A DNA stretch of 64,000 nt from positions 62,001 to 126,000 of the forward strand of contig NJAL01000007.1 in assembly GCA_002591725.1 (NCBI GenBank). Direction: 5' to 3'. The notes under the pieces are model-generated. The model saw only the letters and a program-made list of their open reading frames with translations, ran no database searches and was not told where the DNA came from. The position numbers were made by a program, and so were the translations under genes. Positions within the stretch are counted from its first letter, which is position 1. Each line of letters opens with the position of its first letter. Shown in pieces: positions 1 to 64,000 of this stretch. The DNA is from Candidatus Didemnitutus mandela (GTDB taxonomy: Bacteria > Verrucomicrobiota > Verrucomicrobiia > Opitutales > Opitutaceae).

Positions 1-2160
1 TGCTGATGCTGGCAAGTTTCTTTGCGCTTTTTTCAGAAGCGGTTTAGAAGCATATACCTGAGCCGCCAATGGCTGGGCGCCGGACTATGTTGTGTTGGCG
101 GCGGCTGCAATCACGCTCTGGCAGCAAATGGTCTCGGTGAGCGGCCTCTGCTGCTCCTGGTGGTGCTTGTGGTTGCAGTGCTATTACTTCTGACAGAATA
201 TTCCGCCGAGCTGGCGGTCGCGCGGAATACTCGCTTTTGATGACCGTGTTCGCCGTCGTGGCTTGGCACGCAGCGTGGTCGTAGCTGGGTATCTGTTGAG
301 GATGATGTGGAAAATCTGGCCCTCAAGGCTGACGATCTTCGAACGCTGCTAGCCGCACAGCGCGCGATCTTGAGCGCGGGAAATACTGAGCACAAATCTG
401 AACAAACTTGGCAACAGGGGGAAACTTGCGGGGATTGAGCGGAATTTGTAGAAACGGCTTTGGTTGGATTGGCGGTCTCGTGCTCACGGTTTTTCTCTTT
501 GCGGAAGAAAATTTTGTATCAATTCCAACAGGGTACAGCCAACCGGATGCGCTGGTTTTGCACTGGTACTGTTCGTGTTGCTGGCAGGGACAGCCGTTTT
601 TGAATTCCGGCCAGGGGCTCGCGATTTCCGGTATATTATCTCGCGCTGTTGTTGGTCGTCTTTGAAATCGGCTTTTCTTTGTCCTTGGCGATGGCTGGTT
701 TGCTAGCGTTTTGGCTTGGGCGCGATCTCCTTGAAACCTCACCTGGTGTATTTTTATTTTCCGCTGTATTCTCAGAATCTCTTTCATGGAGCTGTGGCAT
801 GACATCCAGACGCGTTTCCTCCCGGACCACAGCGTGGCAACGGGAACGGCATGATGTGGCTAGCTGCGCGTTTGGACGAAGCTGGAGCGGATTGTACGGT
901 TCCTATCGTGACAACTGTCAAAAACATCGGTATTGTTTACTGTTCCTAACTTCCGTAACACTTGACAAGCCGTTCTTCACGGAGCTGACCGCGCAAAAGA
1001 AGGAGGCAATCAAACTCAGCGATGCAGGCGGCTTGGAAGGGCTGATTTATGCTGTGGGTTGGTGATTCGGTGGATGTCGGCAGTTTTCCCTTTGGATTTT
1101 TCGCTGCAGCAGCTGGCGGGAATCATAGCATTGCTGGCCAATCCCGTGGTGTTTACCTGAAGACGCTCCGCCTTTCTTCCTGGCGGATCCTGCATGAATT
1201 TCACGCTTTGTGTGACTGCATTCCTGGCTGGAATCGCGTCGAGCGCGTTTGTGGTCTATGTGCCCATTTCCGACTTAGAGCTAGGCCGGGCGCTGAGCGT
1301 GCATATCGCGCGTTGGCTTTCTCTACGACAGCAACATTTTGGCGCCTCCACAGGAGCGATCGGTAGTCTGGCTTACGGACTTGCACTGTCAATAGTTGGG
1401 TGTTGACGCAGACGTTTTTTGTCAGCTAGCTATAAGCTAGCTTTGGATTACGTCTCGGGCCTCCTGGGCGATAGGCCGTTTGCAAGCGACTCCTTTAACA
1501 GCCGCGTGGCGCATGCGTCCAGCGAAGAGAGCAACGTTGACGCTTCAAGCTTCTACGAGATCAGCAAAAACCAACATTCCCTGCTCAATGGCGTGGCATT
1601 GAAGAATAGATGAATCGTCCCTGGGCAACGAATTCAACGTGTGGTACATCGTTTTCGGTGAGCGGACCGGAGCGATTCTAACGGAGAATTTCTCCGGCTT
1701 CGAAGTGGGGTTTGCGTGGAACCAGCGACTCAAAGCAGTAGGCGAATACCAGTTTCAAAACATTCGTTACGACACGACTGGCAGCGACAAGGATAGCAGT
1801 TCGCATTTTTTCGTTGGCTTCGATTGCTTTGGCGCGGGAGAAGTGGCTAACGAGCGGACGGGTCGGATACAGTTGCATCGTTTGCCGAGCTTAGCTTGCG
1901 TTACGCGTATGTTAAAGGTTCGTTTGTGGCGGGCGGTTCCGGCCTCGATGAAACCAATCTTCATCTTGGTTTGGATTTGATTTTTGATACCGAATAAAAA
2001 CTGGTAGCTCAGCGCGACTTACGACCGCAGCTACATTAATTCCGAGGAATCGAGTCGCAGCCAACAACGCGGTTGCACGGGTGCGAACGCCCGCTTCGAC
2101 TTCTGAAGAGAAACTCGGTGGTTTCTTCGCTTCGTCGCCGGCTGAATCCGCCACACTGAT
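1..2160. other. Decayed region, probably surface-polysaccharide related
   Basis: No reading frame here has the length or composition of an intact gene. The plus strand carries short hydrophobic stretches near 130-200, 640-730 and 1195-1260, which look like remains of membrane proteins. From about 1410 to 2000, shifting plus frames give aromatic, Gly/Ser/Asp-rich strand-like text (for example SASYKLALDY near 1420 and RYAYVKGSFVAGG near 1900), as in an outer-membrane beta-barrel. The remnant leads straight into a dead polysaccharide tyrosine-kinase gene. I therefore infer, weakly, that this is the start of a lost exopolysaccharide export locus. I could not assign a family with confidence. Confidence 0.35.
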
Positions 2161-2164
2161 AGAC

Positions 2165-4010
2165 TTTTTTAGCCTGCTGTGTCTGCGGGAGTGTTGGCTC
2201 TTCCTCATCCTTGGTGTTATAATATTCACGGCCGTGGTTGTGAGCGTTCGCCTAAGCGGATGCTTCTCAATGACTAAAATTCGCGCCGATATGAAGCCTC
2301 CACAGGCGAACGCCTACTATGGTCCGTGCTTCACCTAGGACCAGCTCGCAATCCTGGAGTTGGAGAAAATTCTCTATCACGTGATAAACGATCTCTAACT
2401 GAATGACCTACTCGATTGGGAGATCGGCGACGGATATGCGCTGCCCTCGGCAGTTACCTGCCTACATCTGCTGAAATCTCCTGAAAAAATGCTGCGGGTT
2501 GAACCGCACCGATCGACGGCGTTGATCGAAGTCAGTGCTCTCTCGAGGAACCTGCAGCTAGCGGCGACTATCGCCAACGATATCTCCTAGGTTTATTCTG
2601 AGGACCGCGTTTTGCTTACGACTTTCGAACAGCGGGAGGGCCTCGCGAAACTCGGCGACGAGCTGTTCCAAGCAGGGAAAGGTTGTGAAGGACCAATGAG
2701 ATAAGGTGAAACATTGAGCAAATACCTCTGTATTTTCGGTGTCGATCTGAACCAGCGCTACTGGAACATAGAAAACGAGTCGTTACCGCAGATGCAGAAC
2801 TTGCTCATCGAACTGCGGGCCTAATACGATCAGACGCAAGGCTCGCTGGGAGAGGTTCAAGGCAATTTCTGGTAGCCGAGCGCTCATGAATTCGGAGCTA
2901 ATCATCGATCTGAGCACCCAGGGCTTCCTTCAGACCTAAATCATTTTCGATCAAGCCATTACCAAACTGAGCGTCCGGCTTGGGTGGTGCATTCCGATTT
3001 GACCGCGGCGATCGACCTCCGGGTTGAGATTCAGGAGCAGCTTGATGCACAGCTCCACGGATGAGAGAGTCGCTTATATTAATTATAAAGAATCCGAGGC
3101 GCGTTTGATAAAAATGGAACGACAGCTTGGGTAGCGGTGCATCGACCAGATTTTCTCGGCCCGCAAAAAATGCAGCGATTTAAGAAGGTGGCGAGCAAGT
3201 TCGATGGCAGCAGCGGTTTCTCGCGATGCTGAAAGCTGACGTTGCGACAGCAGGGAATCGATTTTAGGTGCCGAATAAAGCGGTCGTAACTCTGAATGCC
3301 GCTGAGAGCTCCCCGTTTCGCGAATCGGTTGAGCTGGTTGCTCAGCATGGTGTTTGCTTTTGTCTTTGACGGCATCCTAGACGATGTTTGATTGAGTATT
3401 TTAACGCGAGTTTCCGGAAGTCGCGGACATTGAAGCAAGCTCGCCGCCCATGCTTGGCATGATTTCCGCACATGCGCAAGCTGGCGCAGGCGCTTGCCGA
3501 GGCCGATCCTTATCGCGTGCTGGCGACCAATTTTGAATCTCGCGTTGCGCACGGGGCCCCAGCCCACAGCGTTGGCGATTTTTCGGTCGGGGTTGAGGGG
3601 AAAGGCCCCCCATAAACTTGTCATAGCTGGCCCTGGCGATTCACAGCGGCGGGCGAAAGTGTATTGTTGAATCTATTTCGACGTGCGGCGGCCAGTTCAG
3701 CGTCATCTTACCGAGCTGTCGCTCGCGTCCAGGATCATAGAAGTGTTGCTGAACCAGGTGGCGCTGGCCTAGGTTGTGCAGCACAATGCTGCAGTTGACG
3801 CGCTGGGGCTGACGCTGAGCCTGCTTTAAACTAGCAAGCTGGGGGAGTTGAAGGTGCGTTGCGGCAAAGTCTTTTTCGATTTACCTCTGTTATCGGTGCG
3901 AGCGACACGGCAGTGCTTGCGAGCCGCCTTGCGAAGAAAGGCTGTACGGGGAAATTCTACGTGCGGCTTTGACTGGATTGAGTTGCGAGAAAAGCTGCGC
4001 CAACGGAAAA
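2165..4010 (+). pseudogene. Pseudogene of Wzz/Wzc-type polysaccharide chain-length regulator with BY-kinase domain
   Basis: Stitched plus-strand frames read as a polysaccharide co-polymerase fused to a bacterial tyrosine autokinase, the inner-membrane protein that controls capsule or exopolysaccharide export. Visible in order are a first membrane helix (LFLILGVIIFTAVVVSVRL, about 2195-2255), the Wzz-domain text KPPQANAYYGPCFT then a stop, DQLAILELEKILYHVI (2340-2390), TFEQREGLAKLGDEL (2620-2660), LPQMQNLLIELRA (2785-2822), LTAAIDLRVEIQEQLDAQL (3000-3058), PYRVLATNFESR (3508-3545) and the kinase-domain segment VIGASDTAVLASRLAK (3890-3940). At least ten in-frame stops plus several frameshifts make it clearly dead. 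The P-loop is not readable. The family match is from memory of typical sequences; an aligned search would confirm it. Confidence 0.75.
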
Positions 4011-4025: not shown

Positions 4026-4770
4026 TGGGTTGGGTGATGAAGCTTTTTCTCCGGTTGGAATTGATTGCTTTTGGCACGATGGCTAGCCTATTTCCGGCTT
4101 ACGGGGAAATCTAGGTTGTTGGCTCCGATCTTTTCGGAGCGGCGTTTGAGCGCGAATGGGCACAGTTTCCCAAGTAAAACGATGCGCCGGTTACGCTGGG
4201 ATTCCAATGATACGCGGGAAAACGTGACTGCTTTTGCAACGGAGTGGCGGACGTCGGGCTGTTTTATATGCTGCTTGGTGAGAAAATGTCGGAGAACTTT
4301 GCTTATCGCGCCATCAATTTCCAAGTTGCGGCTTTGATGGTGCCCGAGTTGTCGTCGTTGGATCTAACTGACAATGGACCAGCTGCACGAAAACGAAATT
4401 TTTGACGCAACAGGTAAATAGGTAGCAAAATCCTAGACGAAAGTCTGCCAAGCGGGGATTTGGGTGATTGCAGTCTGGTGCAGTATCTAGCGGGAACCGC
4501 GGTTGTTGTCGTTGGTGAGCGTGTGCTTCCGACTCCCAGTGGTTTATCTCCCTTGCGGCGGCCGATGCGCCGCAGTTTCTATTGTTTCCGAAGTTCCTGC
4601 TAAATAAAAGAGAAAAGATGGGGGCGGTATTGACGCTGGCCGCAGTGACATCAACTGCTTTGCGGCGTGTGCAACCAATTTGTTTTCGATCTCGAGGAGC
4701 TGCGCTGATGGTACCACGTAGGCTTGCCAGGGCGGGGTGAAGTGAGCTTTCATTAGCAGGCTACCTTTTT
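4026..4770 (+). pseudogene. Probable pseudogene of a periplasmic phosphate-type substrate-binding protein
   Basis: An ATG at 4035 begins a signal-peptide-like MKLFLRLELIAFGTMA. Alternating frames then give short pieces that fit a PstS-like periplasmic binding protein: DVGLFYMLLGEKMSENFAY (about 4248-4308), NFQVAALMVPE (4316-4348) and a segment ending TMDQLHENEIFDATG (4374-4415), where family members have the hinge-region text with LT-x-x-QL-x-x-IF. Every frame is interrupted within about 90 codons. It sits just 5' of valS on the same strand and does not overlap it. The assignment rests on short motifs, so another periplasmic-binding-fold protein is possible. Confidence 0.4.
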
Positions 4771-4780
4771 ATTTTTGAAT

Positions 4781-7507
4781 ATGGCCAAAATCAATAAGAG
4801 CTACGAGCCGCAGGATGTGGAAAAGAAGTGGTATGCTGCTTGGTACGAGAGCGGGTGTTTTGCGAGCAAGCCGACGCCAGGGAAGCTGTCCTACACGATT
4901 GTTATTCCACCGCCGAATGTTACCGGCGCTCTCACAATGGGCCATGTGTTGAACAACACGCTTCAGGACATCCTCATCCGTCGGGCGCGGCAAAACGGGC
5001 GCGAAGCGTTGTGGATTCCCGGAACGGATCACGCTGGAATTGCGACACAAATTGTTGTCGAGCGTGAGTTATTGAAAGAGAAGAAGCATCGCTGCGATCT
5101 CGGCCGCGAAAAGTTTTTGGAAAAGGTGTTGAGTTGGTGCGACGAGAAAGGCGGCATTATCCTTAAGCAATTGCAGGCGCTTGGTGTTTCCTGTGACTGG
5201 AACCGCACACAATTCACAATGGGCTCGCACTACTCTCATGCTGTGTTGGGCGTGTTCGTGGATCTTTTTCATAAGGGCTGCATCTATCGTGGCAAACGCA
5301 TGGTGAACTGGTGCCCGGCGTCGCTTACGGCGCTTTCCGACGAGGAAGTGGTTGTGAAGCCAGTTAAATGTTTCATTTATCAGGTTCGCTACGAGCTCGT
5401 GGAGCAGTTGGGAACCTACATTACAGTCAAGACGACGCGCCCCGAGACAATTTCAGGCGACGTGGCTATTGCGGTGCATCCGGACGATCCACGCTATACT
5501 GTGCTGCTTGGGAAAAAAGTCTACCGTCCGCTCGGGCCGGCTGCAGAGATTCCAATCATCGCTGACGTGGCCGTGGATAAGGAGTTTGGTTCCGGTGCGC
5601 TCAAGGTCACGCCGGCGCACGACAAGGTCGACTTCGAAATCGGCCAGCGACACGGACTGCCGCTGATCGACGTGCTTACTCCAGATGCGAGACTCAACGA
5701 ACTCGCCGGTCCCGAACTCGCAGGTTTGGACCGTTTTTCCGGGCGCAAGAAGGCAGCAGAACTGTTGGAGAAATTGGGTGCACTCGTGGAGAAGGAACCT
5801 TATGAAAGTAGCGTCGGCTACTCCGAACGTGCCGATGTGCCGGTCGAACCGCGCCTAACCTGGCAATGGTGGTTGAGATATCCTCGGGTCGAAGAGGTTA
5901 AGACCGCGGTGTGTGATGGCCATATAAAGCTTTATCCGGAGCACTGGTCGAAGGTCTATTTGCACTGGTTGGAAAGAATCAAGGACTGGTGCATCAGCCG
6001 GCAACTTTGGTGGGGCCACCGCATTCCGGTCTGGTATGCAAATGGACTCGACAGGGAGGCTTTGACCGAAACCGATCTCAGCGATTTTAAGAAAGTGCAC
6101 GTCTCGCTTACTGGCCCTTCCGATCCTGAGAATTGGACGCAGGAAGAAGACGTGCTCGACACGTGGGCTTCCTCCTGGCTCTGGCCGCTCGTTACGCTTG
6201 GTTGGCCGGACCAGGCAGCGATGGCGTTGGGCGGCTACGACTATTTTTATCCGACCACAACCCTTGTCACTGGGGGGGACATCATCTTCTTCTGGGTCGC
6301 GCGCATGATCATGGCTGGCCTCGAATACGCGCGACCGGGCGAACCGATTGAGAAACGGATTCCGTTCAAGAATGTTTATTTTACCGGAATCATCCGCGAT
6401 GCGCAGGGACGGAAGATGTCGAAATCGCTTGGCAACTCGCCCGACCCACTCGACATGATCGCGAAATACGGCGCGGACGGTCTGCGCTTCGGCATCGTGT
6501 CGATCGCGCCGCAGGGGCAGGACATCCGTTTCCAAGAGGACCGCATCGAAGGCGGTAAAAGTTTTTGCAACAAGCTCTGGAACGCTTGTCGTTTCCGGCA
6601 GATGAGCGGCGAGATGGCCGATAATTCCTCCCTTCTGGCTATCACGGTGCGGATCGAACCGGAGAAGTTCGATGCCGACGATCACGCGATTCTCGACCGC
6701 CTGTTCGCCACCACGCGCGAAGTCGACCGCTGCTTCGTGGAGTTTGAGTTCAGTGTTGCGGTGCAGGCGCTGTATAGCTTTTTCTGGAATGACTTTTGCG
6801 ACTGGTATGTGGAAGTCTCGAAAGTCAAGTTACAGGACGTAGCGACGAAAGCCAGCTGCCTCGCGATTCAGGACCTCGTGTTGTGGCAGATGCTCATTTT
6901 ATTGCATCCGTTTACACCGTTCATCACCGAGGAGCTCTGGCATTTGCTCGGCTATGGCGAGGAAGGAACGTATCTCGCGCATGGCAGGCATAGCGAAAAT
7001 GCTTCGCAGCTTGTCGGATGTGATGTTACGATCAATTTGAATGCAGCAGCGGAGGTTGAGCGAATCAAGAAAACCGTGTCGCTTTTGCGGGCGCTGAAGG
7101 CTGAAAATGGTGAGGCGGCGAACAGGGCGGCCGAATTTATCGTCGAAGCTACCGACCATCAGTGGACTACGATTCAAGCGAATCTGGCCAAACTAAAACG
7201 CATGATCGGTGCCGGCAATATCGTGCGTGGTCCTCTCACACCTGCCGAGCCTGCCACCGTGACGACACATGGTTCGTGGAATCTCGTATGTCAGCTCAGC
7301 CGCACCGATGTAGCTACGAAAAAATCGCGGCTGACAAAGGAGCTCGAAGCGGCTGCAAAACATATTGCCAGCACGGAAATGCGTCTTTTAAATAAGTTTT
7401 TTATAAACAAGGCGCCACCTGCCATTGTTGATGGGCTGCGGAAGCAGCTGGCCGATCTCCAAACAAAGAAAGCCGAACTGGAAAGACTACTCGCCATGCT
7501 GGGCTAA
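4781..7507 (+). CDS. valS: Valine--tRNA ligase
   Basis: Class I aminoacyl-tRNA synthetase that charges tRNA-Val in the cytoplasm and edits mischarged threonine. The 908-residue product is full length for the family. The HIGH-equivalent motif lies in PPPNVTGALTMGHV near residue 45, and the KMSKS loop is in GRKMSKSLGNSPDP near residue 545. Between them lie the editing domain and the catalytic-core text DVLDTWASSWLWP. The C terminus is the usual coiled-coil tRNA-binding arm (LTKELEAAAKHIASTE onward). The ATG at 4781 (MAKINKSYEP) is the sensible start; a TTG two codons upstream is in frame but not needed. Neighbours on both sides are dead polysaccharide genes, so the gene appears to stand alone. 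No defects were seen. Confidence 0.98.
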   Translation: MAKINKSYEPQDVEKKWYAAWYESGCFASKPTPGKLSYTIVIPPPNVTGALTMGHVLNNTLQDILIRRARQNGREALWIPGTDHAGIATQIVVERELLKEKKHRCDLGREKFLEKVLSWCDEKGGIILKQLQALGVSCDWNRTQFTMGSHYSHAVLGVFVDLFHKGCIYRGKRMVNWCPASLTALSDEEVVVKPVKCFIYQVRYELVEQLGTYITVKTTRPETISGDVAIAVHPDDPRYTVLLGKKVYRPLGPAAEIPIIADVAVDKEFGSGALKVTPAHDKVDFEIGQRHGLPLIDVLTPDARLNELAGPELAGLDRFSGRKKAAELLEKLGALVEKEPYESSVGYSERADVPVEPRLTWQWWLRYPRVEEVKTAVCDGHIKLYPEHWSKVYLHWLERIKDWCISRQLWWGHRIPVWYANGLDREALTETDLSDFKKVHVSLTGPSDPENWTQEEDVLDTWASSWLWPLVTLGWPDQAAMALGGYDYFYPTTTLVTGGDIIFFWVARMIMAGLEYARPGEPIEKRIPFKNVYFTGIIRDAQGRKMSKSLGNSPDPLDMIAKYGADGLRFGIVSIAPQGQDIRFQEDRIEGGKSFCNKLWNACRFRQMSGEMADNSSLLAITVRIEPEKFDADDHAILDRLFATTREVDRCFVEFEFSVAVQALYSFFWNDFCDWYVEVSKVKLQDVATKASCLAIQDLVLWQMLILLHPFTPFITEELWHLLGYGEEGTYLAHGRHSENASQLVGCDVTINLNAAAEVERIKKTVSLLRALKAENGEAANRAAEFIVEATDHQWTTIQANLAKLKRMIGAGNIVRGPLTPAEPATVTTHGSWNLVCQLSRTDVATKKSRLTKELEAAAKHIASTEMRLLNKFFINKAPPAIVDGLRKQLADLQTKKAELERLLAMLG

Positions 7508-7689: not shown

Positions 7690-8700
7690 ACCACATAATA
7701 AATTTTTTATCACCGGAATCACTGGTCAGGGTGGGTCGCATCTTGTCGAACTGTCGCTCGACAAGGGAGTGCTAGAAGCGTACGGCCTCACCTGCTGCGC
7801 TTCGGCGTTCAACACGAACCACATCGACTACCTGTATTGGGACCCAGCACACGAGTGGCGTGAAGTTATTTCTTCATTATGGCGACTTGGCGGATTCTGT
7901 CGAGATGGTGAAGCTGTCCTATGACCTGCAACTCAACGAAATCTACAACCTTCGAGTGCAGTTGTACATGCGCGGCTGCTTCGATATTTTCTAATACACT
8001 GGCGACGTGATTGGCGCAGGCGTTGTCCTGCATCCATCCTCGATGTGATTCGCGAAGCGGGATTGATGAAAAAGAAGTGTTGTTCCCAAGCGTCTTTTTC
8101 GGAAATATTCGGCAAGGTGCAGAAAATGCCGAAAACTGAAAAACATCATTTTGACTGCATTTGTTGTACGACTGTGCGAAGATGTGTGCCTACTGGTTAA
8201 TGGTGAACTACAGTGAGAGCTACAATCTGCACGCGTCAAACGGTATTTTGTTCAAAAATAAAAGCCTTTGTTCTTGTAACAAACCTTTGTTACCTGCAAA
8301 ATTATCGGACAGCCACCCCCATCAAGATGAGTCTAGATGCGGTCTGCAGGGTTCGCTTTACATGGGCAATCTCGATGCAAAACGCGATTGAGAATAGGCC
8401 AAGGAATGCTTGGAAATGACTTGGGTCATGTTCTAGCAGGATCAGATCCTCGATTACGTGGTCGTTACGCAGAAGACCTACAACATGAAAGATTTAATTC
8501 AGGAATACTTTGTGTTGATTCGGTCTCTATTGGGAGAAATACGTGAAGTGTGACACCCATTACGGGCTCCATGGGGATCCGACAGAGTGGTATTTTGATC
8601 GGCGATCCGGCCAAGGGGTCGAGAAGCAGATCAGTTAGTTAGGAGCCGAAAGCTAAGTGTAAGGGGCTGATGAAAAATCATGACCGATTTCGGTTTCGCG
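7690..8700 (+). pseudogene. gmd: Pseudogene of GDP-mannose 4,6-dehydratase
   Basis: The intact enzyme makes GDP-4-keto-6-deoxymannose, the first step of GDP-L-fucose synthesis. Frames must be changed repeatedly, but the family sequence is plain: the Rossmann start KFFITGITGQGGSHLVELSL (about 7696-7758), then SAFNTNHIDYLYWDP (7804-7848), YDLQLNEIYNLRVQLH (7918-7968), CAYWLMVNYSESYNLHASNG (8187-8245), the stretch around LDAVCR and YMGNLDAKRDW (8334-8392), LYWEKYVKCD (8526-8556) and GDPAKG (8602-8620). Stops and indels occur every 30-80 codons. It is followed at once by a dead fcl gene in the usual gmd-fcl order, so both steps of fucose-nucleotide synthesis are lost here. Confidence 0.88.
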
Positions 8701-8765
8701 CTTGGTGAAGCTCGAAACCGAAATCGCGAATCTCCAGAAGCCCTAACACGGTTTTTTTCGTGCCG

Positions 8766-9714
8766 ATGAAGCTTTTTATCGCCGGGAAACAATGGGATTT
8801 TCGGTGCGGCGCTCCTGCGGAGCTTTGACTGTGAACCGAGCTTGATGCTCTTTGCTGCGTTTTTGCAAGGAGCTTGACTTTACCAATCAGATCGTAGAAA
8901 ATGGGCTTACTATGTCAATGGAAGGCGGATGTTGCTATTTATTGGCGCGACGAAAACCACGGCAGAATTCTGGTGAATAAAACCTACTTGGTCGAGTTTC
9001 TCTTGCAAGATACCTCGAGGTATCTTAAAATTTAAAATACATCCAATTAGAGCGGTGTGTGGTGTCAAATGGTTCCTGTCTCTTGATAGTTCTTGTAATT
9101 GTAATTTTTCTTTTCCTGAAAAACGCGCTGCAGCCAATGACCGAGGGCTGGCTGCTCATCGGGCCGTTGGAGCCTGTCAGTGAGGCCTACACCACTGCGA
9201 AGATCACCGGGCTGAAGCTTGCGGAGTTCTATCTACGGTGCGCTCTATCATTCCGCGATGCCAACAAGTATTTTCTTCCTGTCGGACGGAATCTACAGAT
9301 CTACAGAATCCCTATGTTATTGTTACCGGCTTTGATCTGATAGCTTCACGAAGCAAAAGAAGTGGGCCTGGCGAAAGTGGTGGCCTGGGGCATGGGCGGT
9401 CTGAAACGCGAATTTCTGTACGTCGACGATTTCGCTGCTGTGTGTGCGTTCCTTATTCCTATGGAAAATCTTCCCGCCCTGGCCAACATTGACGCAGATA
9501 CTGATGTCACTACCAAGAAAGAAAGTCGACAGAAACCGTGGTGGAAGTTGTGAGATTTTCGGGTAAAATTGTTTGGAATTCCTCGAAGCTCGACGGGATA
9601 CCGCGGAAGTTGGTGGAAGTTTCCAGGCTCAGCGGCCTAAGCTGGAAAGCTGCGTCTCAGCTTGCGTGGGGACAGTCGAAAAGGCCTGCGCAGGAACTTT
9701 CTTGCAAAAACTAA
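8766..9714 (+). pseudogene. fcl: Pseudogene of GDP-L-fucose synthase
   Basis: The intact epimerase/reductase turns GDP-4-keto-6-deoxymannose into GDP-L-fucose. The remnant starts at ATG 8766 with MKLFIAGKQWD, where the family has the NAD-binding Gly-rich loop. It then shows FGAALLRSFDCEPS (8797-8840), GPLEPVSEAY (9162-9192), the catalytic-Tyr region TAKITGLKLAEFY (9192-9233), REFLYVDDFAAVCAFL (9399-9450), ETVVEVVRFSGKIVWNSSK (9530-9588) and LDGIPRKLVEVSRLSGLSW (9588-9645). The last reading frame closes with TAA at 9712-9714. The segment between residues about 35 and 100 is badly scrambled. It sits about 65 nt after the gmd remnant, and the pair form one lost pathway module. Confidence 0.87.
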
Positions 9715-20590: not shown

Positions 20591-20601
20591 GCGCGATAGC
20601 T

Positions 20602-33000: not shown

Positions 33001-33005
33001 TCCTG

Positions 33006-52444: not shown

Positions 52445-54391
52445 ATGCAAAATGACCAGACGATGCGCGAACTTACGGTTCGTAGCGTTATCCTCGGCGG
52501 CGTCATCACGCTGCTTTTTACCGCGGCCAATGTCTACCTCGGACTCAAGGTTGGGCTCACCTTCGCGACGTCGATCCCGGCCGCGGTTATTTCTATGGCG
52601 GTGTTGCGGGTTGCCGGGAATTCAAATATTCTAGAAAATAACATCGTACAGACGATCGCTTCGGCAGCGGGCACGCTGGCTGCGACCATCTTTGTGTTAC
52701 CTGGCCTGGTCATAATCGGATGGTGGCAGGGTTTTCCGTATTGGACGACAGTCGCGGTGTGTGTGTGTGGTGGCATTTTGGGCGTAATGTTTTCGGTGCC
52801 GCTGCGGCGCGCACTGGTGACTGGTTCCGATCTGCCGTATCCGGAAGGCATGGCGGCAGCCGAAGTGTTAAAGGTCAGTTTTAGCTCGACGGAAGGAAAA
52901 GAAGAAAACACCAAGGGTCTGCGCATGGTCGCCTTCGGATCAGTCATCTCTGCGTGTTATGCATTGCTGGCGTCCATGCGCCTCGCGGTGGCGGAAGTGG
53001 CGGTGGCTTTTCGCGTCGGCAGCGGTGCGACTGCAGGTTCGATGAACTTGTCGCTCGCCCTGATCGGTGTTGGTCACCTGGTCGGTCTTTCGGTCGGTGT
53101 GGCGATGTTGCTCGGTATGTTGATTACGTGGTTTGGCCTTGTTCCGCTCCTAACGTCTATTCATGGCGTGACAGGCAACGTCGGCGCATTCGTCAATTCG
53201 ACTTTCCGCAGCGAGGTACGTTTCATTGGTGCGGGTACGATCGGGGTCGCGGCGTTGTGGAGTCTTTTTCAGATTCTTGGTCCCATCGTGAAAGGCATTC
53301 GTTCAGCGATTCTGACCTCGAGGGCGCGCCAGGCGGGCGTGGCGCTTCAACTGACGGATCGCGATTTACCGATCGGTATCGTGGGCGGCACGATCGTAGC
53401 GATGCTGCTGCCGATTGCCGGGCTGCTTTGGCATTTTTCTTCGGGGACGGCGATTGCGGTGGATGTCTGGCCAGCCATCTTTTGCATGCTGGCTTACGTG
53501 CTTGTGGTTGGCGTGTTTATCGCTTCGGTGTGCGGCTACATGGCCGGCCTTATCGGCGCCTCGAATAGCCCGGTATCAGGCGTTGGCATTCTTGCGGTTC
53601 TCGGCGCGGCTTTGCTGCTGGCGATCTTTTACGGGCACGGCGTCAGCCCAGATAAAACCGAGGCGCTGATCGCCTATGCGTTGTTTACAACGGGCATCGT
53701 GTTTTCCATCGCGACAATTTCGAACGATAATTTACAGGACCTTAAGACCGGCCAGCTCGTGGGCGCCACGCCGTGGCGGCAGCAGCTTGCGTTGATTTAC
53801 GGCGTTATCTTCGGTTCGCTCGTGATCCCACCGGTTCTCGATTTGCTTAACAAGGCTTTCGGTTTCGCTGGCGTGCCCGGTGCTGGAGCCCATGCTCTTG
53901 CGGCTCCCCAGGCAACGCTGATTTCAGCGCTTGCGAAGGGCGTGCTTAGTGGCGATATCGACTGGAGCTTGATCGGCTGGGGCGTGTTGCTGGGGATTGC
54001 CATGATCGGGCTCGATGAAATCATGCGCAAAACCGACAAGATGCGCTTGCCGCCGCTGTGTGTGGGGATGGGGATTTACCTGCCGATGGCGTTGACGTTC
54101 TTGATTCCTGTCGGTGCGGTGGTTGGACATTATTTCGAGCGTTGGGCGGGCCGGCAGTTGCGCGCGGAGTTTGCCAAGCGTATAGGCGTGCTGGCGGCGA
54201 CGGGCCTGATTGTAGGCGAGAGTCTGTTTGGTGTTGCGTTCGCCGGTATCGTGGCGGTGGTGGGTAACGACTCGCCGCTGGCGGTAGTGGGCGACAGCTT
54301 TGAAAAATTTGGAACCGTGATCGGGTTGGCCTTGTTCGCTATCGCGACCACCGCGCTATATTGCTCGGCCAAACGTGCGGCATCGGCCTGA
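52445..54391 (+). CDS. OPT-family oligopeptide transporter
   Basis: A proton-coupled transporter of the OPT superfamily, which in bacteria imports peptides or metal chelates. The 648-residue protein has about 16 hydrophobic segments and starts MQNDQTMRELTVRSVILGGV; the TTG two codons upstream is in frame but unlikely. Family hallmarks include TAANVYLGLKVGLTFATSIP near residue 35, NNIVQTIASAAGT near residue 70, the SDLPYPEGMAAAEVLK motif near residue 130 and CGYMAGLIGASNSPVSGVGI near residue 365. The reading frame is free of lesions and has high GC at third positions, unlike its surroundings. It follows a dead thrC gene. Being the only intact transporter here, it may supply host-derived peptides or amino acids; that is inference. 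Confidence 0.93.
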   Translation: MQNDQTMRELTVRSVILGGVITLLFTAANVYLGLKVGLTFATSIPAAVISMAVLRVAGNSNILENNIVQTIASAAGTLAATIFVLPGLVIIGWWQGFPYWTTVAVCVCGGILGVMFSVPLRRALVTGSDLPYPEGMAAAEVLKVSFSSTEGKEENTKGLRMVAFGSVISACYALLASMRLAVAEVAVAFRVGSGATAGSMNLSLALIGVGHLVGLSVGVAMLLGMLITWFGLVPLLTSIHGVTGNVGAFVNSTFRSEVRFIGAGTIGVAALWSLFQILGPIVKGIRSAILTSRARQAGVALQLTDRDLPIGIVGGTIVAMLLPIAGLLWHFSSGTAIAVDVWPAIFCMLAYVLVVGVFIASVCGYMAGLIGASNSPVSGVGILAVLGAALLLAIFYGHGVSPDKTEALIAYALFTTGIVFSIATISNDNLQDLKTGQLVGATPWRQQLALIYGVIFGSLVIPPVLDLLNKAFGFAGVPGAGAHALAAPQATLISALAKGVLSGDIDWSLIGWGVLLGIAMIGLDEIMRKTDKMRLPPLCVGMGIYLPMALTFLIPVGAVVGHYFERWAGRQLRAEFAKRIGVLAATGLIVGESLFGVAFAGIVAVVGNDSPLAVVGDSFEKFGTVIGLALFAIATTALYCSAKRAASA

Positions 54392-54779: not shown

Positions 54780-56130
54780 TTGTTCGGTCTTCGTTAACGC
54801 GGCCGGGAGGATTGTTAGGTCTTCGTAAAGGACGGCGGCGAGTTTGAGGGCGGCGTAGAAGCCGTGCGACTCTGAGTTAAAAAAATACGGCTTCGTTGCT
54901 ACAAACTGCTAGAGATCTGTTGGGGATTGCGAGACCCAGCCCACCGCTGCCTTTGCGGATACGTGCTGTTTCTGGCTTATAAAAGAGTTCTCCGGACCGG
55001 GCGAGAATCTCCGCAGGCACACCAGGATCGTCGTCTTCGATTACGAAATACGCTTGCTTGTTTTTGCGGCGGGTCTAGAATGTAACCGGCGCTGGGCGTT
55101 GCGAGCGAGTTTTCCTACCCAGCACGCGGCCGAGGAGCAGCGCGTCGAGACGGCCCCCCCTCGCGGGCTGGAACATCTTCTACATAACGCGGGTAGACCT
55201 ACTGTTGCTAAGTCGACGGTTTGCGGACGCAGCCCCCCGGTGCTGGTAAAGGCGAGAAACCTGCTTACAAGTTTGGCGATCTGTTGCATTTCTTCGCACA
55301 CGTTCGGGACGGTGGGGGCTATAGCCCGGCGAGGGATTAGCGTTTGAGCAATTCGACTGCGACCTGTAGGCGCGTAGCGGAGATACCAATTTATTGGCGA
55401 TGCTGCCAAGAAATCGTCTCTGATCGTTCACAAGCATGTCGAACTTCGTCACCACTGCATCGACAACTTCCCCGAGGCGCCAAATTTTCCCGGAGATGCG
55501 GGCGTTGGTCCTAGCTTCAAAATGTTCTTCGGCGAAACTGGCTGGTGGCGTGCGTTGGGCGGTGTAGCTGGCGAGATAGCGAGATATGATCTGCGCAAAC
55601 TGGAGCCAGAACAGAGTGGAAATTCCCACCGCGATCGGCTTGGGACACCGGTTCTGAAAGAGAGGCCGAGGAGGCCGGCGAGGAACCAGAACGACGCAAT
55701 ACAAGTGAGCAGGGTGGAGGGCGGGGGCCGTGTTGCTCTTTTCTAGAATCCCTTGGCTGGGCTGCAGAAGCAGCCCAGCACTAGTAACTGCAGTCGGCGG
55801 TACGTACGAAGAAGCGGCTAGGGTCACCGCCGCCGTTGCATAGCCACAGGGTTTCCCGCTATATATCCCTTCTCGCAGTGGGCGATGGCTGCCGCTCGAT
55901 CTGGACCGGCATCCGTATACAGGCAGCGGCCAAGAGTGTCGGTGATGACTTGCACGCGATCGCCGAGTGGGCCGAGTTCGAGCGTCTGCCAGCCAGAATC
56001 GCTGCGCAGGAGAAACTACCCAATGGCGATGACTAGCAGCAGGTTTGCAATGGGAATAAGAAGGGAGACTTTGGCGGGGGGGATTTTTATCGGGGCAGGC
56101 GCCTGAAACGTAGTATGGAAAGTCATAGGT
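54780..56130 (-). pseudogene. Pseudogene of a two-component sensor histidine kinase
   Basis: Minus-strand frames give an N-terminal membrane helix (KVSLLIPIANLLLVIAIGWF, about 56080-56020), periplasmic text, a linker with the HAMP-adjacent DMLVNDQRRFLGSIANKLVS, and PLRAY (55445-55370). In relatives this is R-R-x-L-x-x-I-S-H-E-L-x-S-P-L-x-R: the phospho-accepting His is replaced by Asn. Next come EEMQQIAKLVSRFLAFTSTG (55300-55240) and GLRPQTVDLATVGLPALCRR (55239-55180). The G2 box of the ATPase domain survives as GSGGLGLAI (near 54940). The order matches CpxA-like envelope-stress sensors. Together with the response-regulator remnant upstream on the same strand it forms a dead two-component system. 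Confidence 0.75.
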
Positions 56131-58165: not shown

Positions 58166-58807
58166 GTGCAGCGCACGGCGAATCCCGAGAACGATGAATT
58201 GTTTTGGCATGGCGTTGTCTTTGATTCATTGGCTGCGGAGTGGTGGCATGACGATTCTGGAAACGGCTGGCAATATGAGGGGCTCGGCGGTGGGATAATC
58301 TCGGTAATCAACCAGCAGTATGCCCGCGCCCAACTATTGGGAGCGCATTACTATTGTGAATTGCCGACTGTGTTTTGGAACTGCGTGTCTGAAGACGGAA
58401 AGAAAATGGCGCTTTGTTGGTTGAGTATCGACAGCTTCTCGATTTGCGGTCGGCTGATTTCGGTCGACGACAAGCTGCTAGATATCGCGGTTTCACGTGG
58501 TGCGATCAGTGCCCGGTTTTGCGAGCATGAGACTGCCCGGGCCGACAGGGAAACGTTCGTTTCTGAGCCGGAATTCGCTGATGCCCGTGGCGAACAGATA
58601 ATATTCCTACTGGAGACAGCGGGCGTGGAACAGTCAGAGCATCTTGCCGGGCGGGACTTTGCCGAGCTTGAGATCGAAGGGCTATCCGCTTTGGGTGAGC
58701 GATTGGTAGTGTTTTGCCCCGAGTGCGATTGCAATGCCTTTGTTGGATTAGACGAATTTACCCTTTGGCGAAAATCAGTCCTTCTAAGTGTAATCTTATC
58801 GAGATAA
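58166..58807 (+). CDS. Hypothetical ORF, doubtful
   Basis: The longest open frame in the window that I cannot explain: 213 codons without a stop, starting MQRTANPENDELFWHGVVFD and rich in Glu, Asp and Ala in its second half (FAELEIEGLSALGERLVVFC). There is no signal peptide or membrane segment and no motif I recognise. The opposite strand also has a 169-codon ORF (58351-58860) of Ser/Arg/Pro-rich, unlikely composition. The plus-strand text of the second half resembles the antisense of a real gene, a common artefact in GC-rich DNA, so a dead minus-strand gene is an alternative. Confidence 0.25.
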   Translation: MQRTANPENDELFWHGVVFDSLAAEWWHDDSGNGWQYEGLGGGIISVINQQYARAQLLGAHYYCELPTVFWNCVSEDGKKMALCWLSIDSFSICGRLISVDDKLLDIAVSRGAISARFCEHETARADRETFVSEPEFADARGEQIIFLLETAGVEQSEHLAGRDFAELEIEGLSALGERLVVFCPECDCNAFVGLDEFTLWRKSVLLSVILSR

Positions 58808-58809
58808 AT

Positions 58810-59710
58810 TTTGCGGGATAAGAAGGGTGATAACGCTGGCGTGGGGGGTAGCTTTGACACGGTAAATGGAGCTATTGTGGGGGATTCCTCCTCGCTATCG
58901 GAGTAATAGACCTTTCATAGTTGGAAAATCTTTCCCGGTGGTTGCAGATCCCATTTATTGAAATTGGGATAATAGCCAGGTATCGAGCAGCGGGTTGTGC
59001 GTGACGACTAAACCTTCGGTGTCCTCCGCTTCGGTGTTGGTAAGGTGGCGTGTTTCGCCTGGTGGGGAAAATATGTTGCTGAGTCGAGCTGCATGCTGTC
59101 TGTTACCGAACAGAGCCGTTTCGTGTCTCATGCGTACAACAAACAACTCCCATTGAGCGAGATGAGTGTGAAAATAGACGAACAGAGCCGCTGGCCGAGA
59201 TACGGTAGATTTGCAGACCAAATGAATGCCTGTCACCCAACAGGTTCCGGCGTTGCGAATGTCGCCAATGGCGAGAAACAGATTCTGGGGAAATAGGTGG
59301 TATTTGCTGGCAGGGGATCGTTGCTCTTCCTCTGGGAGGGGGTGGCATAATCTGGACGCGCAACATGTCAAAATTTTAGCGGAAACAGAAAGCGCCGGAC
59401 AGGGCCCTCGGTGTTTTAATCGAAAGTTCTGGCAGGCGGATCAGTCAGTCGGAACGTAAAGCGCTGCACAACAAAGGGGAATCCGGGCCGAAGACGACGC
59501 GCGTGTTTTACAAAACCGGTGGCAGACAAACGATTCGGTTCCGAGTCACATAGCCCTTCACTCGCTTCGTCGACGTGTCTCAGCGACTCAAGTGGGAATA
59601 TTCTTCAGCAAGAGAAAAGCATGCCGAAAATATCGGCGGTTGAAAAAGTTCTTAAGTCCCAACCTCAAAAAGTGGCACCAAAGCCTCTTTTTGAAGGGAC
59701 CGCGTTACGG
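58810..59710. other. No gene recognised
   Basis: Only short frames. A minus-strand ORF (58955-59371) has protein-like text (LFLAIGDIRNAGTC; FVYFHTHLAQWELFVV) but no assignable motif. Plus-strand text near 59620-59740 (PKISAVEKVLKSQPQKVAPK) is lysine-rich and unassigned. An imperfect inverted repeat TCAAAAAG/CTTTTTGA (about 59665-59693) might serve as a weak terminator for gcvP on the minus strand. Confidence 0.35.
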
Positions 59711-59717
59711 AATGTAT

Positions 59718-62687
59718 CTATTTTTGAAATCGCGTTTGCGTAGCCGGATGGGCAGATGCTTCAGCATAGGCATCCATGTCGACGCACGAGCACGCGAGGT
59801 TGCGATCGCCGTAGGCGTTGTCGATGCGGCCGACGCTCGGCCAAAACTTGGCGGCGCGTGTCCACTTGTCGGGGAACGCGGCTTGTTCGCGGCTGTAGGG
59901 TTTGGTCCATTCGGTGGCGCAGATAGCTGCGGCGGTGTGTGGGGCGTTTTTTAATAAGTTGTTAACTTTGTTACTTTCCCCACTGGCCACAGCAGCCATC
60001 TCGTCATGGATGGAGATCAGAACGTTGCAGAAACGGTCGAGCTCGGTCTTAGTCTCGCTCTCGGTCGGCTCGACCATAATCGTTCCGGGGACTGGAAACG
60101 ACATCGTGGGCGCGTGATAGCCATAGTCCATTAGGCGCTTGGCGACATCCTCGACTTCGAGACCGTGCTTTTTCCACGGGCGAAACTCGAAGATGCATTC
60201 ATGGGCGATTAGCCCGTTGGTGCCCTTGTAGAGGACGGGAAAGAATATTTCGAGGCGCTTGGCGATGTAGTTGGCGTTGAGGATGGCAAACTGTGTTGCA
60301 CGTTTCAGGCCGTCGGGTCCCATCATTCTGATATACATCCAGGAAACGACAAGGATGCTCGCGCTGCCCCGCGGCGCGGCGCTAACGGCGCCCATGTGGT
60401 GGCCGCTGGTATCGGCGTGGAGATGGACGACTGGGTGGCTGGGCAGAAACTCGGTGAGGTGCTTGGCCACACCAATCGGACCCATGCCAGGGCCGCCGCC
60501 CCCGTGCGGAATGCAGAAAGTCTTGTGGAGGTTGAGATGACAAACGTCGGCGCCGATGTTGCCGGGCGAAGTGAGTCCGACTTGAGCGTTCATGTTGGCC
60601 CCATCCATGTAAACCTGACCGCCGGCTTCGTGTACGAGGCGGCAGATGGCTTTGATCGAAGCCTCGTAGACCCCGTGGGTCGACGGGTAGGTGACCATAA
60701 GCGCAGCGAGGTTGGCGACGTGTTCTTTGATTTTAGCCTGGAGATCGGTGATGTCGATGTTGCCGTTTGCATCACACACGACGGAAACGACCTTCATGCC
60801 GCACATCGCAGCACTCGCAGGGTTCGTACCATGGGCGCTTGTGGGGATGAGACAGATGTTGCGATAGCCTTCGCCGTGCGATTCTTGGTAGGCGCGGATG
60901 ATGAGGAGACCGGCGTATTCGCCTTGGGAACCGGCATTAGGCTGGAGCGATACAGCGGAGAAACCGGTAATCTCTGTGAGCCATTTTTCCAACTGGGCAA
61001 AGAGCTGGGCGTAGCCCTTGGCCTGGTGGGCTGGCGCGAAGGGGTGTAGGCGGCCAAATTCCGGCCAGGTGACCGGAAGCATCTCGCTGGTGGCGTTCAG
61101 CTTCATCGTGCAGGAGCCGAGCGAGATCATCGAGTGGACTAGGGAGAGATCCTTGTTTTCTAGTCGTTTGATGTAGCGGAGCATCTCGTGCTCGGTGTGG
61201 TATTTGTTGAAGGTGGAGGCAGTTAGATAACCGGAGCTGCGGGCGTGTGGCGCGGGTAGTTTGACGAGCTCGGCGGTCCATGCGGGCGGCATTGCGCCGA
61301 AAAGCCAGAGCAAGGTGCGCACGTCGCCAGTATTTGTGCTTTCGTCGAGGGAAATGCCGACGGTTGAGGCATCGACTGGACGAAGGTTGATTTTTGCGGC
61401 GGAGGCCGAAGCGTGGAGTTTGGCGGCATCGATTCCCGAGACGGTGAGTGTATCGAAGACTGGCTCGGCGTTCACTTGCAGGCCAGCTGCCTTGAGGCCG
61501 TCGGCGAGCTCTTGCGTGAGACGGCGAAGGCGAAAGGCGATTTTCTTCAGGCCTTCCGGGCCATGATAAACGGCATACATCGACGCCATTACCGCCAAGA
61601 GCACTTGTGCGGTGCAGATATTGGACGTGGCTTTGTCGCGGCGAATGTGTTGCTCGCGTGCACCGAGGGCAAGGCGCATGCTGGAGTTACCTTGTGCGTC
61701 TTTCGACACGCCGACCAGACGGCCAGGTATTTGGCGTTTAAACTCATCCTTTGTGGCGAGAAAGCCGGCGTGCGGGCCACCGAAGCCAATCGGCACGCCG
61801 AAGCGTTGGGCGGAGCCTACGGCGACATCAGCGTTGAATTCGCCGGGAGCGCGGATGATCGTCAGGGCCAGTAGGTCGGTCGCGACGATGCAAAGGGCCC
61901 CGGAAGTATGTGTCTTCTCGAAAAAATGTTCGAAGTCGTGAATGCTTCCGGTCGTATCCGGATACTGCACGAGCACGCCGAAGACCGGCGTTGCGGCGAA
62001 ATCGAAACTGCCGTGATCGCCTACGACAACGGCGATATTGAGCGGCTTGGCACGCGTGCGGACGATGTCGATCGTTTGTGGGTGGCATTTTTCAGAAACG
62101 AAAAATTTAGACGCATTGTTGCTGCCGCCCAGCTTTATGCGGTGGGTGAGCATCATAGCCTCGGCAGCGGCGGTGCCTTCATCGAGCATCGAGGCGTTCG
62201 CGATTTGTAAACCGGTAAGGTCGGTAACGAGCGTCTGGAAATTGAGTAGCGCTTCGAGGCGGCCTTGGGAAATCTCGGGTTGGTATGGCGTGTAGGCGGT
62301 ATACCATGCGGGATTTTCCAGGATGTTGCGTTGGATGACGGACGGGGTGAGACAGTCGTAATAACCCATCCCGATGTAACTGCGGAACAGTTTATTTTTT
62401 GCGGCGATGCTGCGAAGCTCAGCGAAAGCGGCGGATTCACTAGCGGCGGTTGGAAGCTTTAGGGCGCGTTTTAGACGGATGGCAAGAGGCACGGCAGCAT
62501 CGGCTAGTGAGTCGAGCGAATCGTAGCCCACTGTTTTGAGCATTGCGGCGACGTCGAGATCGGGCGAGCCGCTGTGGCGGCGTTCAAAAGTATCAAGTGG
62601 AGCGAGTAAGTCGCTATTTTTGATTATTTTTTTCAAATTATGGAGTCGAAAAGCGTGTAACTGAGTTTTGGAAGTGTTGCTCTCCAT
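59718..62687 (-). CDS. gcvP: Glycine dehydrogenase (decarboxylating), P protein
   Basis: The PLP-containing P protein of the glycine cleavage system, which decarboxylates glycine and passes the aminomethyl group to the lipoyl H protein. The 989-residue single-chain form is full length. It shows [20 protein letters not shown] and [20 protein letters not shown] in the N-terminal half, the glycine-rich [14 protein letters not shown], and the PLP lysine in [20 protein letters not shown] (residue about 735), then [10 protein letters not shown] near the end. It begins [13 protein letters not shown] at ATG 62687, slightly upstream of the conserved [15 protein letters not shown]-rich DNA 5' of it (62690-62800) is the likely promoter region. 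I saw neither a glycine riboswitch nor gcvT/gcvH in the window. No lesions. Confidence 0.97.
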
Positions 62688-62689
62688 AA

Positions 62690-64000
62690 CTCAATTTTTT
62701 ATAATAACTTGAAGTAAGTTTTCGAGTTTAGTTTTTGGAGGTAATTTGTATATTTTAACGATAACTTAAATTTTTTAAACCATCTATACCGTGAATATTG
62801 CGAGCAAGTCGGGCGGGCTTCTTGTTACTGTTGGTGGTTTTTAGCCGTGACCAAAGTCAGTTAAGGTGGCAACACTGCTGTTAACTAGCTAAAGTCCGTT
62901 TTTTAAAGGGCAGACAGGCCAAGATAATGTAAACAAACCGGCATATGCAGGCGACGATTTTCTGTGCCAGCTTGTGTCGAATCGGATAATTATCTGTTGG
63001 CATTCGTGCCGGTGGACTGCGTCCTGGCTGGAGCCATTTTGCGGAAAGTGCTGAATGGCGAGGCGGAACCAGCCCGGGAACTTCGTTTTTCGGCCAGCCT
63101 CGATACCGCTGCTCGCCGGACTTAAAGAATGTGTTTCTTCTTTTCGATTTGGTGCCCGAGTTGGCTGAGATAGATGGCTTTTGACTACGGCTTGGGAGGT
63201 TTCCGCACCCGGGCATACGCATACCACCGCTGTGAATTTACGCCTGCCGATTATGCGGCCGTTCCGTTGTAGGGGGGAAACTCTTCATGTAGTTGCCGTA
63301 GTTGCGTTCTTTCTTTCTCAGGTAGCGTAGCGTGAAGGCGTTAATTAGACATGTTCGTGATAGTATCACTAGTGTGTGTTCGACTGCATTGTGGACGACA
63401 GATCGCCAGTCTTTGTAACGAGACACTGGAACCTTTCCTTGGACTGTTTGCCAGCTTATCCATCTTTTCCCTCCAGTATGGCATGGCCAGGGAGGCAGGT
63501 CGCAAAGATAAAAATCTAAAGATCTATCCGCATGGCATGGTGCAGTATCCGAGTGGAATCCGCAACTGGTCCGTTTGTTGTTGGCGGGGGCTTGACAAAA
63601 GCGTTTCTTCCTGCGGGCGCAGGACGGCTATTTTATGGCGACGCTCGACGCTCTTTGTGCGAGGTTGATAGAATAGAAAACAGAAGGGGGTAACTTGAAC
63701 GACCAGGGCGGCTGAAACAAGAATTTTACGCTTAAGGGGGACCTTGTAAAGTGGGTGATGTAGATCCGACAGCCCCAACTCGAGAATCTCGAGTATACCC
63801 AGCCCTTCGATTTGTTTCCCAGTGATCCACCGGCTGGCTAATCGGTCTTTACCGGAGCGTTGGCCATCGTGCTGGGGACCTTAGCTTCGGCTAGCACGGT
63901 GGGAGATGACTTGGTCCTTAACTGCAGACCAGTGGTAGGGTTCGATAGCGAATAACAACGGCACTGTTTTTTCTGGCTTGGAAGCGGTTGCCCATGCAGG
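62690..64000. other. Region without intact genes
   Basis: After an AT-rich stretch (62690-62800) that probably carries the gcvP promoter, no frame is convincing. Both strands have ORFs of 60-113 codons with improbable composition. Near the window end, plus-strand text VFTGALAIVLGTLASASTVG (63849-63910) is a hydrophobic helix from some dead envelope protein. Nothing could be assigned. Confidence 0.35.

What the first reader, a model, noticed from the sequence alone, without database searches (positions are those of the whole stretch)
1..64000. Low coding density with recognisable pseudogenes: early-stage genome reduction of a symbiont
Intact genes cover only about 30% of the window, and about 24 dead genes are still recognisable between them. 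Lesions include substitutions to stop codons as well as indels, so poor assembly alone cannot explain them. Large intact genes (valS 2.7 kb, gcvP 3.0 kb, recD2 2.2 kb) carry no lesion at all. This sharp split implies strong selection on few functions and recent relaxation on the rest, as in symbionts that have just become host-dependent.
Basis: partly seen in the sequence, partly recalled or inferred. Interest (0 to 1): 0.7.

Follow-up and report, generated by a model that had tools for sequence, protein, structure and literature searches.

The report
Decaying genome of known tunicate symbiont
This stretch of DNA comes from what is almost certainly an already published sea-squirt symbiont whose genome is falling apart; the decay is real, but much of it is old rather than just begun.

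Summary
Twelve open genes cover 28.9% of the window, 23 older wrecks 30.2%, two freshly damaged genes (hprK, lptB) 2.8%, and 38.1% is unassigned. The 11 intact genes with a syntenic reference show 0 frameshifts and 0 stops in 5,664 codons; the 23 old wrecks about 161 frameshifts and 96 stops in 6,306. Amino-acid identity to non-reduced same-genus relatives is 78% for intact genes and 48% for old wrecks; assembly error cannot do that.

The genome (2,171,216 bp, 10 contigs, a giant PKS contig; [quoted passage not shown] So the finding is already known.

'Just become host-dependent' is not supported. Dead genes have run unconstrained for a pooled ~40% of the substitutions since the split from relatives, gene by gene from about 10% to about 80%, with hprK and lptB only just damaged. 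Loss was staggered and appears to continue. Wreck density (33 in 104 kb) suggests that the published count of 226 pseudogenes is roughly a threefold undercount.

The parts
4775..7507 (+). valS, intact
   Evidence: 910 aa open frame; 71-76% identity to G005/G001/G008
9941..10981 (+). prfB main frame, intact
   Evidence: 82% identity, 0 lesions; NCBIfam prfB for the G001 ortholog
10988..12397 (+). intact conserved gene of unknown function
   Evidence: 76-77% identity to 3 of 3 relatives, 0 lesions; no Pfam or PDB match
16138..17058 (-). sucD, intact
   Evidence: 84% identity, 0 lesions
17078..18259 (-). sucC, intact
   Evidence: 85% identity, 0 lesions
20611..21351 (-). rph (ribonuclease PH), intact
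   Evidence: 76% identity, 0 lesions
32955..33938 (+). thioredoxin/AhpC-TSA-like gene, open frame
   Evidence: Pfam AhpC-TSA; best relative 54% over its C-terminal half; no syntenic reference
37649..40069 (-). recD2, intact
   Evidence: 78% identity, 0 lesions; Pfam RecD2 domains
44522..45745 (-). class I/II aminotransferase, intact
   Evidence: 72% identity, 0 lesions
45853..46695 (+). panC, intact
   Evidence: 68% identity, 0 lesions
52397..54391 (+). OPT oligopeptide transporter, intact
   Evidence: 78% identity to G005, 0 lesions
59718..62687 (-). gcvP, intact
   Evidence: 79% identity, 0 lesions
23154..24207 (-). hprK, young pseudogene
   Evidence: 73% identity but 5 frameshifts and 1 stop; only match in the genome and below family cut-off
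24284..25024 (-). lptB, very young or borderline damage
   Evidence: 76% identity, two frameshifts that cancel, first start codon 30 codons inside
3..1145 (+). glycosyltransferase-like (PMT_2) pseudogene
   Evidence: 53% identity, 15 fs, 4 stops
1224..2103 (+). EpsL/BBP2-like outer-membrane protein pseudogene
   Evidence: 42% identity, 3 fs, 3 stops
2019..3924 (+). EpsF/Wzc-like exopolysaccharide gene, pseudogene
   Evidence: 51% identity, 16 fs, 12 stops
4037..4360 (+). PstS-like fragment, pseudogene
   Evidence: 31% identity, 3 stops; weak match
7700..8743 (+). gmd pseudogene
   Evidence: 60% identity, 10 fs, 5 stops; no copy over cut-off elsewhere
8703..9651 (+). fcl (GDP-fucose synthase) pseudogene
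   Evidence: 53% identity, 10 fs, 4 stops
15636..15791 (-). DUF6538-like fragment, uncertain
   Evidence: 70% identity over 65%, no lesion
15889..16021 (-). 75-aa gene remnant
   Evidence: 66% identity, 1 fs, 1 stop
18382..18830 (+). CP76/CII-like regulator pseudogene
   Evidence: 57% identity, 2 fs, 3 stops
18812..20631 (-). DUF885 pseudogene
   Evidence: 44% identity, 23 fs, 9 stops
21430..23023 (-). M28 peptidase pseudogene
   Evidence: 49% identity, 12 fs, 5 stops
25076..25964 (-). lptA-like pseudogene
   Evidence: 47% identity, 3 fs, 3 stops
26072..26569 (-). kdsC pseudogene
   Evidence: 41% identity, 4 fs, 5 stops
26682..27614 (-). aldo-keto reductase pseudogene
   Evidence: 48% identity, 8 fs, 7 stops
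27724..28155 (-). MhqD-like esterase pseudogene
   Evidence: 40% identity, 5 fs
28140..29795 (+). Dpp5-like S9 peptidase pseudogene
   Evidence: 45% identity, 17 fs, 13 stops
36402..36743 (+). 292-aa gene remnant
   Evidence: 43% identity, 3 fs, 1 stop
42458..42783 (+). mlaE remnant
   Evidence: 61% identity over 29%, 2 fs, 1 stop
42796..43387 (+). mlaF remnant
   Evidence: 54% identity, 5 fs, 1 stop
43835..44227 (+). pqiC-like remnant, uncertain
   Evidence: 30% identity over 60%, no lesion
47131..48047 (+). panE pseudogene
   Evidence: 53% identity, 9 fs, 5 stops; no copy over cut-off elsewhere
54834..56099 (-). 485-aa gene, pseudogene
   Evidence: 43% identity, 9 fs, 3 stops
58451..59338 (-). 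cupin-like gene, pseudogene
   Evidence: 42% identity, 4 fs, 8 stops

Best explanation
The window is a 1x stretch of the chromosome of 'Candidatus Didemnitutus mandela', the mandelalide-associated symbiont of a Lissoclinum tunicate. Inside the host many functions are no longer selected (inferred); the genes for them collect stops, frameshifts and amino-acid changes and are then deleted in pieces, while a minority of genes stays under purifying selection though valS evolves faster than in relatives. Shown here: the dead genes, their lesions, their collinear intact counterparts in relatives, and the bimodal divergence. Inferred: host dependence as the cause (from the published identity), and timing. 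The loss is staggered and in mid-course, not just begun: old wrecks (exopolysaccharide, fucose, Mla, kdsC, lptA, panE, peptidases) decayed over a pooled ~40% of the lineage's substitutions, whereas hprK and lptB were damaged only lately.
For: Identity: 2,171,216 bp in 10 contigs and 21 ketosynthase matches, 18 on contig C1 with open frames of 6,379-9,403 aa, against the published 2.17 Mbp, 10 contigs, 51.93% GC and 108-kbp PKS contig. Decay: 0 of 5,664 codons with stops in 11 intact genes versus 96 of 6,306 in 23 old wrecks; 78.1% versus 48.1% identity. At sites invariant among relatives, second codon positions are kept at 91.9% (2,989 sites) in 6 genes of the intact set and 74.6% (3,882 sites) in 16 broken ones; fourfold sites of the former at 58.5% (849 sites). 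Staggering: per-gene unconstrained share 0.09 to 0.79 over 14 of the 15 old wrecks where it could be computed (the 15th, PstS-like, gave 1.18 on 97 sites), 0.09 for hprK, about 0 for lptB. Shrinkage: six anchor intervals total 30.3 kb versus 56.1 kb in G005 and 79.0 kb in G001. Repeated in 2 of 2 other stretches aligned. Faster valS: symbiont tip 0.276 against 0.008-0.175 in nine same-genus relatives.
Against: The assembly was not matched letter for letter to NJAL00000000; completeness here is 74.5% against the published 94.2% by another marker set. Substitution shares are not time: if the symbiont mutates faster, 40% of substitutions is less than 40% of time. The neutral yardstick (fourfold sites) is partly saturated and under changed base composition. 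Only 15 of 23 old wrecks had enough relatives. The valS tree is weakly supported around the symbiont (41, 53). Dead DNA at 51-52% GC is not at the crude equilibrium estimate of 37%, which argues against great age. The lifestyle of the relatives is unknown; I call them non-reduced from size (4.0-5.2 Mb) and ORF coverage (0.91-0.95).
Confidence: 0.88

Rival explanations
1. Early-stage reduction: the lineage became host-dependent very recently, in one wave.
For: hprK and lptB are barely damaged; gene order is kept with relatives; dead DNA is not AT-rich; the authors wrote 'relatively recently'.
Against: Old wrecks at 48% identity versus 78%; per-gene unconstrained shares spread from about 0.1 to about 0.8; 38% of the window unassigned.
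Confidence: 0.09
2. Assembly or sequencing error produced the frameshifts and stops.
For: None found; draft metagenome assembly.
Against: Illumina assembly; 0 lesions in 5,664 intact codons beside 257 in 6,306; dead genes also carry a heavy amino-acid substitution load, which errors cannot give.
Confidence: 0.01
3. The stops are read through (altered genetic code or recoding), so the genes are alive.
For: hprK keeps 73% identity in spite of lesions.
Against: All three stop codons occur inside wrecks (42 TAG, 29 TAA, 25 TGA) and none inside the 11 intact genes; frameshifts outnumber stops; identity has collapsed.
Confidence: 0.01
4. Genuine decay by drift in a lineage that is not host-bound.
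For: Nothing in the window itself shows a host.
Against: The matching genome was sequenced from tunicate zooids and tunic.
Confidence: 0.01

Closest known systems
'Candidatus Didemnitutus mandela' (Lopera et al. 2017, PMC5698493; abstract, passages and sections 7 part 1, 10, 19, 24 seen)
   Same: Size, contig number, sampled GC (0.50-0.53), a giant trans-AT-like PKS contig, low coding density, many pseudogenes including LPS genes.
   Different: The paper counts 226 pseudogenes and 63-64% coding density in 1x contigs from Prokka ORFs; homology to syntenic relatives here gives 25 dead genes and 29% intact coding in 64 kb. The paper leans to 'relatively recently'.
'Candidatus Endolissoclinum faulkneri' (as described in PMC5698493)
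   Same: Tunicate symbiont, PKS producer, low coding density.
   Different: Published as more eroded: 34.1% GC, 5 recognisable pseudogenes; here dead DNA is 51-52% GC and still recognisable.
Sodalis glossinidius (as described in PMC5698493)
   Same: Hundreds of pseudogenes (972 cited there).
   Different: Cited as very recent; the old wrecks here have lost far more sequence identity. The Sodalis side was not tested here.
'Candidatus Synoicihabitans palmerolidicus' (PMC8636102, passages seen)
   Same: Ascidian-associated Opitutaceae with multicopy PKS clusters.
   Different: About 4.30 Mbp and reported without genome reduction.

Membership tests
'Candidatus Didemnitutus mandela' genome | 2.17 Mbp in 10 contigs | tested here: met
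   2,171,216 bases, 10 contigs versus Table 2
'Candidatus Didemnitutus mandela' genome | about 51.9% GC | tested here: met
   0.528, 0.518, 0.521, 0.502 in the window and three other stretches; whole-genome GC not computed
'Candidatus Didemnitutus mandela' genome | one large contig with a multi-module PKS | tested here: met
   18 of 21 KS matches on C1, open frames up to 9,403 aa
'Candidatus Didemnitutus mandela' genome | sequence identity with GenBank NJAL00000000 | not testable with these tools
   record not searched; accession read
Genome-reducing (transitional) symbiont | many pseudogenes with stops and indels beside lesion-free genes | tested here: met
   repeated in 2 of 2 stretches
Genome-reducing (transitional) symbiont | smaller genome and intervals than non-reduced relatives | tested here: met
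   2.17 Mb versus 4.0-5.2 Mb for G001, G005, G008; 30.3 versus 56.1 and 79.0 kb
Genome-reducing (transitional) symbiont | faster protein evolution in retained genes | tested here: inconclusive
   one gene, valS: longest same-genus tip 0.276, but weak node support and one relative with a similar outgroup distance
Very recent ('just host-dependent') symbiont | pseudogenes little diverged apart from the disabling lesions | tested here: not met
   48% versus 78% identity; met only by hprK and lptB
Host-restricted symbiont | obligate life in a host | not testable with these tools
   rests on the published sampling and inference

The most novel reading that the evidence does not exclude
The published picture of this genome understates its decay: most short Prokka ORFs in the 1x contigs are chance frames in dead DNA, true intact coding there is near 30% rather than 63-64%, pseudogenes number around 650 rather than 226, and gene loss has been spread over a large part of the lineage's history, so that this is an intermediate genome caught with corpses of graded age, from almost fresh (lptB, hprK) to nearly erased.
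Probability: 0.55. Interest if true: 0.4.

Novelty: already known. Interest (0 to 1): 0.25.

Why it matters
The phenomenon and, very probably, this very genome are in print. What is added is that same-genus, non-reduced relatives are now available, so that decay can be measured gene by gene against collinear intact copies. This gives graded ages for losses and shows that pseudogene counts made from predicted ORFs can miss most old wrecks, which affects how symbionts are placed on the path of genome reduction.

Tried and rejected
Assembly error, stop-codon recoding and second intact copies were considered and rejected. A whole-window annotation from open reading frames was not used, because the ORF count in the 43.7 kb of dead and unassigned DNA is near chance: 62 frames of 100 aa or more against 51.7 +/- 6.9 and 50.3 +/- 6.5 in second- and third-order Markov sequences, but 37.4 +/- 6.0 in first-order ones, so some excess remains. 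Prokka itself was not run. Of 34 ORFs of 100 aa or more lying wholly in unassigned DNA (my count), 18 were given to Pfam: 16 had no match, one matched TMEM175 above cut-off and one AA_permease below it, so the unassigned part holds a few more remnants. tRNA and Rfam scans of the window found nothing. Two valS trees used wrong strands or frames and were discarded. Some relatives' genes were called on the wrong strand by my ORF caller (for example an antisense frame over prfB in G005); for those another relative served as reference. True dN/dS was not computed, since fourfold sites are far diverged; the second-position to fourfold ratio for the intact set is 0.14. Own stretch L144 was only measured for ORF coverage (0.10 against 0.38 for the window), not aligned.
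Full report
What was checked. The window is contig 8, bases 62001-126000, of a genome of 2,171,216 bp in 10 contigs. It has no tRNA and no Rfam match. Relatives of the same genus were found by valS (29 genomes searched), and about 1 Mb of G001, G005 and G008 was fetched around anchor genes. Their GC is about 64-68% in the first set and my ORF caller covers 91-95% of them. The window is collinear with two blocks of G005 (contigs 35 and 39), with matching blocks in G001 and G008.

Intact and dead genes. A frameshift-aware protein-to-DNA aligner was run for 36 reference genes. Eleven are lesion-free: valS, prfB, a 469-aa gene of unknown function, sucD, sucC, rph, recD2, an aminotransferase, panC, an OPT transporter and gcvP. 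A twelfth open gene, thioredoxin-like, has no syntenic reference. Twenty-three are old wrecks and two (hprK, lptB) are young. Intact: 0 frameshifts, 0 stops in 5,664 codons, 78.1% identity. Old: 161 frameshifts, 96 stops in 6,306 codons, 48.1% identity; 21 of 23 with a lesion. Young: 7 frameshifts, 1 stop in 563 codons, 74.2% identity. In lptB the two frameshifts cancel and the first available start codon lies inside the gene, so it may be damaged or just alive. In area: 28.9% intact, 2.8% young, 30.2% old, 38.1% unassigned.

What died. Names come from families matched by the relatives' intact copies: exopolysaccharide assembly (EpsF/Wzc-like, EpsL-like), a glycosyltransferase, GDP-fucose synthesis (gmd, fcl), LPS (kdsC, lptA-like), lipid transport (mlaE, mlaF, pqiC-like), panE, peptidases, an aldo-keto reductase, an esterase, a cupin, DUF885 and others. 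This agrees with the published remark that many LPS genes are truncated. For hprK, gmd and panE no match over the family cut-off exists elsewhere in the held genome, while all of G001, G005 and G008 have one.

The organism. Size and contig number equal those of assembly Ver_v2 of 'Ca. Didemnitutus mandela' (2.17 Mbp, 10 contigs, 51.93% GC). Eighteen of 21 ketosynthase matches lie on contig C1 in open frames of up to 9,403 aa, as expected for its 108-kbp PKS contig. Sampled GC is 0.50-0.53. [quoted passage not shown] In the held library 11 papers contain the word Didemnitutus; I saw passages of two, PMC5698493 and PMC8636102, and only listings of the rest.

Timing. At nucleotides invariant among the relatives, second codon positions are kept at 91.9% (2,989 sites, six genes of the intact set, lptB counted with them) and at 74.6% in sixteen broken genes (3,882 sites, hprK among them); fourfold sites of the intact set at 58.5% (849 sites). 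Jukes-Cantor distances of 0.086 and 0.604, and 0.310 for the broken set (my arithmetic), give an unconstrained share of about 0.43. Per gene, over 15 of 23 old wrecks: 0.09 (a 50-site fragment without lesion), 0.11 (mlaE), 0.30 (gmd), 0.43 (fcl, panE), 0.50 (Dpp5-like), 0.62 (cupin), 0.79 (hyp485), and 1.18 for a 97-site PstS-like fragment; hprK 0.09, lptB about 0. Stop density of 1.5% per codon, against 4.5% expected for random DNA of this GC, tells the same. These are shares of substitutions, not of time; alignability biases them downward, a raised symbiont rate biases the inferred time upward. valS has the longest same-genus tip in the tree (0.276; nine others 0.008-0.175), but support near it is 41 and 53, and G010 lies as far from the outgroup (0.848 against 0.846).

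Length. Six anchor-to-anchor intervals total 30.3 kb here, 56.1 kb in G005 and 79.0 kb in G001. Not every interval shrank: sucC-rph (2,352 bp) and rph-lptB (2,933 bp) are longer than in G001 (992 and 1,279 bp), and panC-OPT is 5.7 kb here against about 1.5 kb in G005 (coordinates). Substitutions in broken genes imply a crude equilibrium of 37% GC, well below the 51-52% observed, so the dead DNA is not at equilibrium.

Elsewhere in the genome. Two further own stretches were aligned to relatives. L142: 3 lesion-free genes, one 81%-identity gene with 2 frameshifts, 5 broken remnants. L143: 4 lesion-free genes, 3 broken. With the window's 25 that makes 33 in 104 kb (the 81% gene left out, the two lesionless fragments of the window kept in), or about 650 when scaled to the 1x part of the assembly. 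The paper's 226 came from comparing the lengths of predicted proteins with BLASTP hits, which can see only wrecks that still hold a predicted ORF with a hit. The scaling assumes that 104 kb is typical; L144 has even fewer long frames.

Verdict.

Noticed in passing
window 10988-12397 (+): A 469-aa gene of unknown function beside prfB is kept intact at 76-77% identity to three relatives in a genome that loses most genes; no Pfam or PDB sequence match for it, and no NCBIfam match for its G001 ortholog.
   Followed up: partly
window 45853-48047: panC is intact but neighbouring panE is dead and no other panE-family match over cut-off exists in the genome, so ketopantoate reduction must be lost, imported or done by another enzyme.
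   Followed up: partly
window 24284-26569 (-): lptB is nearly whole while lptA-like and kdsC next to it are old wrecks: either a last survivor or kept for another exporter.
   Followed up: no
window 37649-40069 (-): recD2 is intact at 78% identity in a genome reported to lack recB, recF, recN and recQ; the term recD does not occur in the paper's main text.
   Followed up: no
window 46696-52396: The panC-OPT interval is 5.7 kb against about 1.5 kb in G005, with 4.3 kb unassigned: genes lost in G005 or an old insertion.
   Followed up: no
window 40673-41625 (+): Two ORFs in unassigned DNA match Pfam TMEM175 (above cut-off) and AA_permease (below cut-off), probably further remnants.
   Followed up: no
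window 1-64000: GC skew is positive in 16 of 16 four-kb bins and about +0.10 to +0.12 in intact, dead and unassigned DNA alike, which suggests a replication-strand mutation bias.
   Followed up: no
L142 8439-9224: A gene at 81% identity with two frameshifts, another possible fresh casualty outside the window.
   Followed up: no
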